From contig CAMWQE010000004.1 of the NCBI GenBank assembly GCA_947176335.1, forward strand, positions 1 to 33,707: a stretch of DNA of 33,707 nucleotides. The letters run 5' to 3'. How positions within the stretch are numbered: the first letter of the stretch is position 1; every line of letters begins with the position of its first letter. The stretch comes from an uncultured Porphyromonadaceae bacterium (lineage in GTDB: Bacteria; Bacteroidota; Bacteroidia; Bacteroidales; Muribaculaceae). Positions 7,589-33,707 of this stretch are shown here, piece after piece. A program made the position numbers and the translations under genes. A model generated the notes under the pieces. It did not search any database and was not told the origin of the DNA. It saw only the letters and a program-made list of their open reading frames with translations.

Positions 7589-7628
7589 AGCCGGGCACCC
7601 GCAATTGCGGATGCCCGGCTTCTTTTTT
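7589..7628 (+). terminator. Rho-independent terminator
   Basis: AGCCGGGCA-CCCGCAATTGCGGA-TGCCCGGCT followed by TCTTTTTT. Confidence 0.85.
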
Positions 7629-7655: not shown

Positions 7656-7786
7656 CCCGTGCGCCGGAGAGCGCACGCAGACAGTAGCCACGCGGTTAAG
7701 GGAGCGCCAGCGACCGCAACCCGTGGAACCGCGGTAATCTACCTCTCTACCCTCCGCACGGCGCGCCGTGCGGAGGGTAGAGAGGT
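7656..7786. repeat. Dispersed structured intergenic element, copy A
   Basis: Collinear with 33397-33525 (identical 18-mer CCACGCGGTTAAGGGAGC at the same internal offset), ending in a perfect 46-bp palindrome (7741-7786). Confidence 0.8.
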
Positions 7787-7826
7787 GACGCCGTGCCTAC
7801 ATCAACCGTTAAAATTCCCTAAAAAT

Positions 7827-7834
7827 GGGGGGGG
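7827..7834 (+). repeat. Homopolymeric G8 tract
   Basis: AAAAATGGGGGGGGTAATTT, 79 nt upstream of ATG 7914. Confidence 0.9.
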
Positions 7835-7913
7835 TAATTTCCCTTGTAACCGAATGCTCACTTTCTGTGTCTAAGGATATATATATAGTAGTTATCACAT
7901 AAAACTTGCAGTT

Positions 7914-10370: not shown

Positions 10371-10396
10371 ACGCACCATAACTGACTCCTTCTTGT

Positions 10397-10426
10397 GCCG
10401 CGCACTCGCATTTGCCTGTGCGCGGC
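10397..10426 (+). repeat. Hairpin repeat R1 (terminator-like)
   Basis: GCCGCGCAC-TCGCATTTGCCT-GTGCGCGGC; the 29-nt core is identical in R1, R2 and R3. Confidence 0.9.
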
Positions 10427-10473
10427 ATCATTTATATGCAACCTGTATTGGCTGTAAATTAATATAAATTAGC

Positions 10474-11346: not shown

Positions 11347-11382
11347 TCCACCTTATAACAGTTTTATAACTACCTATACGGA

Positions 11383-11415
11383 CCGCGCACTCGCATTTGC
11401 CTGTGCGCGGCGTTT
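11383..11415 (+). terminator. Hairpin repeat R2, terminator-like
   Basis: CCGCGCACTCGCATTTGCCTGTGCGCGGC followed by GTTTTT; identical 29-nt core to R1 and R3. Confidence 0.85.
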
Positions 11416-11449
11416 TTAATCATTCCGTGCTATAATCTTATTTTTTTTG

Positions 11450-12107: not shown

Positions 12108-12147
12108 AATACTTTAAGACTTTTCATTTACATAGTAATCACACCGG

Positions 12148-12181
12148 CCGCGCACTCGCATTTGCCTGTGCGCGGCGTTTT
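12148..12181 (+). terminator. Hairpin repeat R3, terminator-like
   Basis: CCGCGCACTCGCATTTGCCTGTGCGCGGC followed by GTTTTTATT; identical 29-nt core to R1 and R2. Confidence 0.85.
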
Positions 12182-12184
12182 TAT

Positions 12185-33396: not shown

Positions 33397-33525
33397 CCCA
33401 TGCGCCGGAAAACGCATCCAGAAAATAACCACGCGGTTAAGGGAGCATCATCTACTGCAACCCGCGGAAAACCAGCAATCCACCCCTCTCCACCCTCCGC
33501 ACGGCTTGCCGTGCGGAGGGTGGAG
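33397..33525. repeat. Dispersed structured intergenic element, copy B
   Basis: Collinear with copy A at 7656-7786; 18-bp-arm palindrome CTCCACCCTCCGCACGGC-TT-GCCGTGCGGAGGGTGGAG at 33488-33525. Confidence 0.8.
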
Positions 33526-33551
33526 GAACATAACGCGACCATAATCCTCGG

Positions 33552-33675
33552 GGTGCGCTACGCTTACCCACGAGGCTATTGTCCGGACGCGCTCTCCGGC
33601 GCGTCTCTGTTCCTCATTGCTTTGAGCGCGGGACGCGCGAGTCTGTGTATAGCCCCTGGCAAGCGGAGCGCAGCC
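33552..33675. repeat. GC-rich imperfect inverted repeat with internal hairpin, adjoining copy B
   Basis: TGCGCTACGCTTACCCACGAGGCTAT versus reverse complement of ATAGCCCCTGGCAAGCGGAGCGCA; internal hairpin GACGCGC-TCTCCG-GCGCGTC at 33586-33605. Confidence 0.6.
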
Positions 33676-33707
33676 TGTGGGTAGGAAATACACCCTAAGT
33701 ACGAGCC

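What the first reader, a model, noticed from the sequence alone, without database searches (positions are those of the whole stretch)
7656..7786. ~130-nt dispersed structured element (copy A) ending in a perfect 46-bp palindrome, with compensatory changes relative to copy B
Copy A (7656-7786) aligns without gaps over most of its length to copy B (33397-33525). 7741-7786 is a perfect palindrome with 23-bp arms (ACCTCTCTACCCTCCGCACGGCG|CGCC...). Between copies, paired positions change together: GTGCG/CGCAC becomes ATGCG/CGCAT in hairpin 1, and TACCC/GGGTA becomes CACCC/GGGTG in the long palindrome. The invariant 18-mer CCACGCGGTTAAGGGAGC lies between the hairpins. Compensatory change suggests selection on structure: an ncRNA/3' element, a non-autonomous mobile element (MITE/REP-like), or a protein-binding palindrome. 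Both copies start just after a terminator-like hairpin of an outer-membrane transporter operon.
Basis: partly seen in the sequence, partly recalled or inferred. Interest (0 to 1): 0.72.

Follow-up and report, generated by a model that had tools for sequence, protein, structure and literature searches.

The report
REP-pair mobile palindromes in gut Bacteroidota
The repeat is one half of a ~205-base DNA element made of two inverted hairpin repeats of the classical REP type, copied around a gut bacterium's genome; in a sister species two copies flank a transposase gene of a class on record as having no such repeats.

Summary
Copy A (7658-7786) is the left half of a ~205-nt doublet; copy B (33399-33605) is a whole, decayed doublet: L unit (hairpin H1, linker, GTAG, imperfect hairpin), long GC palindrome, inverted S unit of the same design. 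The genome has 30 unit hits, mostly intergenic, forming six doublets; one sister species has nine hits and three doublets; 145 other relatives have none.

Base pairs covary (0/500 shuffles). The GTAG-hairpin keeps an AA/GC mismatch placed as in E. coli REPs. In the sister species two doublets lie 13 and 57 bp from a 153-aa Y1 HUH transposase gene (a REPtron). So this is a REPIN/BIME-type non-autonomous repeat, not an ncRNA.

New: the transposase carries the Y---Q--HH signature of TnpA_Y1 subclass 1.2, listed in a 2018 survey as without REPs. In the genus 22/29 such genes share repeats between flanks (0/222 control ORFs); elsewhere, mostly Bacteroidota, 34/68 (0/68 mismatched). The element is absent from one orthologous site, the REPtron from three. 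No cognate transposase was found in the window's own, incomplete genome. Mobility and cleavage are inferred.

The parts
7658..7677 (+). Copy A, outer hairpin H1 (CGTGCGC-CGGAGA-GCGCACG)
   Evidence: three of seven pairs show changes on both sides across 15 units
7684..7687 (+). GTAG tetranucleotide at the 5' foot of the REP hairpin (copy A)
   Evidence: sequence; seen in most units of both genomes
7688..7726 (+).
7741..7786 (.). Central perfect 46-bp palindrome of copy A (spacer of the doublet)
7590..7619 (+). Terminator-like hairpin with T run upstream of copy A (ordinary neighbour, not part of the element)
   Evidence: sequence; repeat family D1
33399..33469 (+). Copy B, L unit (H1, degenerate tag ATAA at 33425-33428, L-type REP hairpin 33429-33467)
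   Evidence: (79.5 bits)
33485..33525 (.). Copy B central palindrome (18-bp perfect inner arms 33488-33505 / 33508-33525)
33544..33605 (-). Copy B, inverted S unit: H1 33585-33605, tag ATAG 33576-33579, S-type REP hairpin 33545-33575 with AAGCGTAGCGC core
   Evidence: (56.5 bits)
33650..33681 (+). A further REP-like hairpin without H1 (TAG + CCCCTGGC-AAGCGGAGCGCA-GCCTGTGGG) just after copy B
   Evidence: core motif twice in the window against 0.04 expected; sequence

Best explanation
The finding is one half of a REPIN/BIME-type non-autonomous DNA element: two REP units of different type (L and S) in inverted orientation around a long palindromic spacer, ~205 nt in all. Each unit carries GTAG (or a decayed form) just 5' of an imperfect hairpin with an AA/GC internal mismatch, plus an extra hairpin H1 at the outer end. 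Most likely mechanism: when the strand is single (for example the lagging-strand template), the GTAG-hairpin is bound by a cognate Y1 HUH transposase (TnpA_Y1 subclass 1.2, found between two doublets in sister species G017). The enzyme nicks near the hairpin through its tyrosine, and the doublet is copied or moved to new, mostly intergenic sites. Shown: anatomy, covariation, dispersal, intergenic placement, transposase flanked by doublets in G017, absence from orthologous sites. Inferred: binding, nicking, mobilisation in trans, and that the window's species has or had the same enzyme.
For: 30 unit hits in the window's genome and 9 in G017, none in 145 other relatives; 9 inverted doublets of 201-210 nt. 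Covariation: L units 20 cells with both sides changed, score 0.265 against 0.147 +/- 0.015, 0/500; S units 11 cells, 0.215 against 0.130, 0/500; slid controls far lower. The AA/GC mismatch persists while the stems around it covary; E. coli REPs share a conserved AA-GC mismatch whose repair severely impairs TnpA_REP activity, and GTAG is essential there (PMC8266576). In G017:C12 doublets L100:1369-1572 and 2105-2307 lie 13 and 57 bp from a 153-aa Y1_Tnp ORF (L100:1586-2047 -) with DHIH and YIRNQTEHH. Genus-wide 22/29 Y1 genes share repeats between flanks against 0/222 control ORFs; loci from the wider collection, mostly Bacteroidota, 34/68 against 0/68 mismatched. 34 of 39 units overlap no ORF of 110 aa or more. 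The G017 site orthologous to copy A lacks the element, and hflX loci of G000, G019 and G001 (95-99% identical protein) lack the REPtron.
Against: No cognate (>50% identical) transposase was found in the window's own genome: its two Y1 genes are 41% and 29% identical and sit beside other repeats. The assembly is 78% complete and several copies sit at contig ends, so this is inconclusive. Copy number (about 30 units) is low for REPs. Only one REPtron carries exactly this family. H1 has no counterpart in the classical REPs I compared. No biochemical evidence.
Confidence: 0.85

Rival explanations
1. A structured non-coding RNA or 3'-UTR/attenuator element selected at RNA level (terminator, mRNA stabiliser, RNase barrier).
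For: Copies A and B lie after terminator-like hairpins of upstream genes; strong folding; known REPs can act secondarily as RNA elements (PMC3733652).
Against: No Rfam match; absent at the orthologous site in G017; varied neighbours; no T run after the palindrome; transposase linkage and strand-specific GTAG are unexplained.
Confidence: 0.06
2. IS200/IS605-type MITE (PATE-like): an internal deletion derivative carrying one left and one right end of a classical IS.
For: The linked protein is nearest in PDB sequence to ISHp608 TnpA, weakly (E 0.05), and scores 47.6 bits on the IS200 equivalog model; IS200-class end hairpins are imperfect too.
Against: The two hairpins are on opposite strands (doublet), whereas IS200/IS605 ends are same-strand (established knowledge of the family); the gene in G017 is flanked by whole doublets, not by one half each; the protein is below the IS200 equivalog cut-off of 55.
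Confidence: 0.06
3. A chromosome-structure or protein-binding palindrome kept by the host, spread by recombination or duplication rather than by transposition.
For: The long palindrome varies between copies yet stays perfect in several; two copies on C18 lie in a tandem array with shared flanks.
Against: Perfect arms can also arise by template-switch correction; GTAG, AA/GC mismatch and transposase linkage are not expected.
Confidence: 0.03

Closest known systems
E. coli REP/BIME with TnpA_REP (TnpA_Y1 subclass 2.2, group 2)
   Same: GTAG 5' of an imperfect hairpin, AA/GC mismatch in the stem, dimorphic units in inverted pairs, mostly intergenic, linked to a Y1 HUH protein flanked by the repeats.
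   Different: Sequence unrelated; extra outer hairpin H1; long palindromic spacer; transposase of subclass 1.2 (YIxNQxEHH) instead of class 2 (Y..NP); far fewer copies.
REPINs with RAYTs (Pseudomonas, group 3 / subclass 2.5)
   Same: Non-autonomous doublets of inverted REPs able to form a long hairpin, one candidate transposase gene.
   Different: Hairpins imperfect, transposase from another subclass, Bacteroidota host, low copy number.
TnpA_Y1 subclass 1.2 (Quentin et al. 2018, PMC6006769)
   Same: ~150 aa, DH[IV]H, WQ, Y---Q--HH, low copy number, Bacteroidota.
   Different: That survey lists subclass 1.2 with no REP and generally without IS ends; here many of the genes are flanked by palindromic repeats, and one by dispersed GTAG doublets.
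CGTC-tagged REPs (PMC3733652), the REP type reported there from Bacteroidetes
   Same: Palindromic repeats in inverted dimers.
   Different: Here CGTC at the outer end is paired inside H1, not an unpaired tag; the tag is GTAG; a linked transposase exists.

Membership tests
GTAG REP / BIME-REPIN | GTAG tetranucleotide at the 5' foot of a palindrome | tested here: met
   Present in most units; copy B has decayed ATAA/ATAG
GTAG REP / BIME-REPIN | Many dispersed extragenic copies | tested here: met
   30 hits in G000, 9 in G017; 34 of 39 overlap no ORF of 110 aa or more. Moderate number, not hundreds
GTAG REP / BIME-REPIN | Units paired in inverted orientation | tested here: met
   9 doublets, 201-210 nt
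Group-2-like REP (E. coli type) | Conserved AA/GC internal mismatch in the stem | tested here: met
   Kept in nearly all full L and S units while neighbouring pairs covary; E. coli rule from PMC8266576
REPtron | Y1 HUH transposase gene flanked by the cognate repeats | tested here: met
   G017:C12 only
REPtron | Cognate transposase in the same genome as the window | tested here: inconclusive
   Only 41% and 29% identical Y1 proteins found in an assembly 78% complete
RAYT / TnpA_REP class 2 | Y..NP motif and NCBIfam REP_Tyr_transpos | tested here: not met
   Motif is YIRNQTEHH; no hit to NF047646
TnpA_Y1 subclass 1.2 | Y---Q--HH, DH[IV]H, WQ, ~148 aa | tested here: met
   75 of 76 scored relatives have the Y---Q--H pattern. 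No tree was built against the published subclass sequences
IS200/IS605 (subclass 1.1) | IS200 equivalog model score above cut-off; same-strand hairpin at each end | tested here: not met
   47.6 bits against 55; opposite-strand doublets
CGTC REP | Unpaired CGTC tag at one end | tested here: not met
   CGTC lies within the H1 stem
Known RNA family | Rfam covariance-model match | tested here: not met
   No match in the window
GTAG REP / BIME-REPIN | Single-strand-specific cleavage and strand transfer by the cognate protein | not testable with these tools
   Needs biochemistry

The most novel reading that the evidence does not exclude
TnpA_Y1 subclass 1.2, described as lacking both IS ends and REPs, is a REP/REPIN-mobilising transposase of Bacteroidota: an independent branch of REPtrons on the IS200 side of the family that uses GTAG/NTAG hairpins with the same AA/GC-type mismatch as class 2 RAYTs, here with an added outer hairpin and a palindromic spacer.
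Probability: 0.6. Interest if true: 0.7.

Novelty: new variant of a known kind. Interest (0 to 1): 0.52.

Why it matters
If right, an orphan subclass of HUH transposases gets a candidate substrate, and GTAG-type REP doublets extend to Bacteroidota, where a 2013 survey (PMC3733652) reported only CGTC repeats. REP-type recognition (GTAG plus mismatched hairpin) would then belong to both the IS200-like and the RAYT branches, which bears on how domesticated REP transposases arose. It also supplies a compact pair (a 153-aa enzyme and a ~205-nt substrate) for a direct test.

Tried and rejected
Scan of viral contigs with GCGGTTAAGGGAGC: 86 scattered hits for a 14-mer, taken as chance and not pursued. 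Rfam gathering search: none. A genus pattern for the S-type core had a wrong spacer length and found nothing; ignored. Integron attC considered and rejected by eye: GTTAAGG does not fit GTTRRRY. CGTC-REP rejected (tag is paired). IS200/IS605 MITE rejected on opposite-strand doublets. Intrinsic terminator: the scan found none in the palindrome of copy A.

Full report
Observation. The element is larger than described: copy B runs on to 33605 with an inverted unit, while copy A has only the left half and the palindrome.

Anatomy. A covariance model of the first 71 positions, built from ten copies in the window's genome, finds 30 units there with E below 0.004, plus one weak match (E 0.1), and 9 in one congener, G017. 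None of the other 145 genomes searched has any. Units come in two types. L has GTAG followed by CCACGcGGTT-AA-GGGAGC..GCGACC-GC-AACCCGTGG. S has GTAG followed by CCTCGnGGGT-AA-GCGNAGC-GC-ACCCCGAGG. Both are preceded by hairpin H1. Nine doublets (L and S in opposite orientation) measure 201-210 nt. The spacer between L and S contains a long GC palindrome whose arms differ between copies but are perfect in several.

Selection on structure. Across 15 L units and 16 S units the proposed pairs form in 96% of cells, with 20 and 11 cells changed on both sides; no shuffle reaches the covariation score and slid controls are much lower. The sequences are related, so these counts are not independent events. 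The varying arms of the central palindrome may reflect template-switch correction rather than selection. The AA/GC mismatch in the REP hairpin is different: correction would erase it, yet it persists, which argues for recognition by a protein (inference).

What it is. E. coli REPs are imperfect palindromes preceded by GTAG with a conserved AA-GC mismatch in the stem; GTAG tolerates no change and repairing the mismatch severely impairs TnpA_REP activity (PMC8266576). The units here have both features at the same relative places. In G017 two doublets lie 13 and 57 bp from a 153-aa gene with a Pfam Y1_Tnp match (8.5e-18) and intact HUH and Tyr motifs, which is the layout called a REPtron. With the inverted pairs this makes the element a REPIN/BIME-type non-autonomous repeat.

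The transposase. Its motifs (DHIH, WQ, YIRNQTEHH) fit TnpA_Y1 subclass 1.2, which Quentin et al. 2018 list as REP 'no', without typical IS ends, in Cyanobacteria and Bacteroidetes (PMC6006769). It is below the cut-off of the IS200 equivalog and does not hit the REP transposase model. I tested whether flanking repeats are general. In the genus 22 of 29 such genes share a repeat between their two flanks at E below 1e-6 (13 of 18 with at least 400 nt on both sides), against 0 of 222 other ORFs. Among 68 loci from the wider genome collection (mostly Bacteroidota, a few Ignavibacteria) it is 34 against 0 in mismatched pairs. The ORF control is not matched for length of intergenic flank. TAG at a hairpin foot is more frequent near these genes (10/66) than elsewhere (12/556); repeats count more than once there. 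Dispersed copies of other families were seen in G011 and in some Mucilaginibacter genomes, in small numbers.

Mobility. The intergenic region in G017 orthologous to copy A keeps a terminator hairpin and the downstream gene but has other sequence instead of the element. The hflX loci of G000, G019 and G001, with proteins 95-99% identical to that of G017, lack the REPtron. These are differences between species; precise empty sites and target sequences were not established. Three partial copies join H1-GTAGC to a different repeat, a mosaic structure with the break just after GTAG.

Limits. The window's own genome gave no close cognate transposase. It is 78% complete in 244 contigs and several copies lie at contig ends. 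Nothing here shows cleavage or transposition. The literature library is open-access only, so later descriptions of REPs for subclass 1.2 could be missed.

Verdict. A new family of REP doublets, ordinary in kind, with an unexpected partner enzyme and some unusual anatomy (H1 and the palindromic spacer).

Noticed in passing
G000:C78:3738-3788, C186:3204-3243, C21:3282-3321 (L121, L130, L133): Three copies join H1-GTAGC to another repeat (GGAAGCTCCGCAGGAGCG...AAGCGTAGCGCA...CGGCTTCGGAGAAGTCG); the break lies within a few bases after GTAG.
   Followed up: partly
G000:C48:733-1167 and C6:19839-20216 (L142, L157): Two other Y1 genes of the window's genome, each embedded in different palindromic repeats; the C48 repeats contain TAG + CCCCGGGTGAGGGA..GACCG..CCCGGGG, similar in layout to the L unit.
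   Followed up: partly
window 10393-10433, 11378-11418, 12143-12183: Three near-identical terminator-like hairpins (CCGCGCACTCGCATTTGCCTGTGCGCGG) after successive genes (repeat family D1).
   Followed up: no
window 7814-7840 and orthologous sites in G017, G019, G020: A run of 8-9 G followed by TAA(A/T), conserved upstream of the outer-membrane beta-barrel gene in four species, possibly a promoter element or a phase-variable tract.
   Followed up: no
L210-L270 (Mucilaginibacter and relatives): Y1 genes flanked by short palindromes followed by CTTTGTAGAA (e.g. GGGGCTACCGCTTTGTAGAAA), dispersed in up to 10 copies in one genome.
   Followed up: partly
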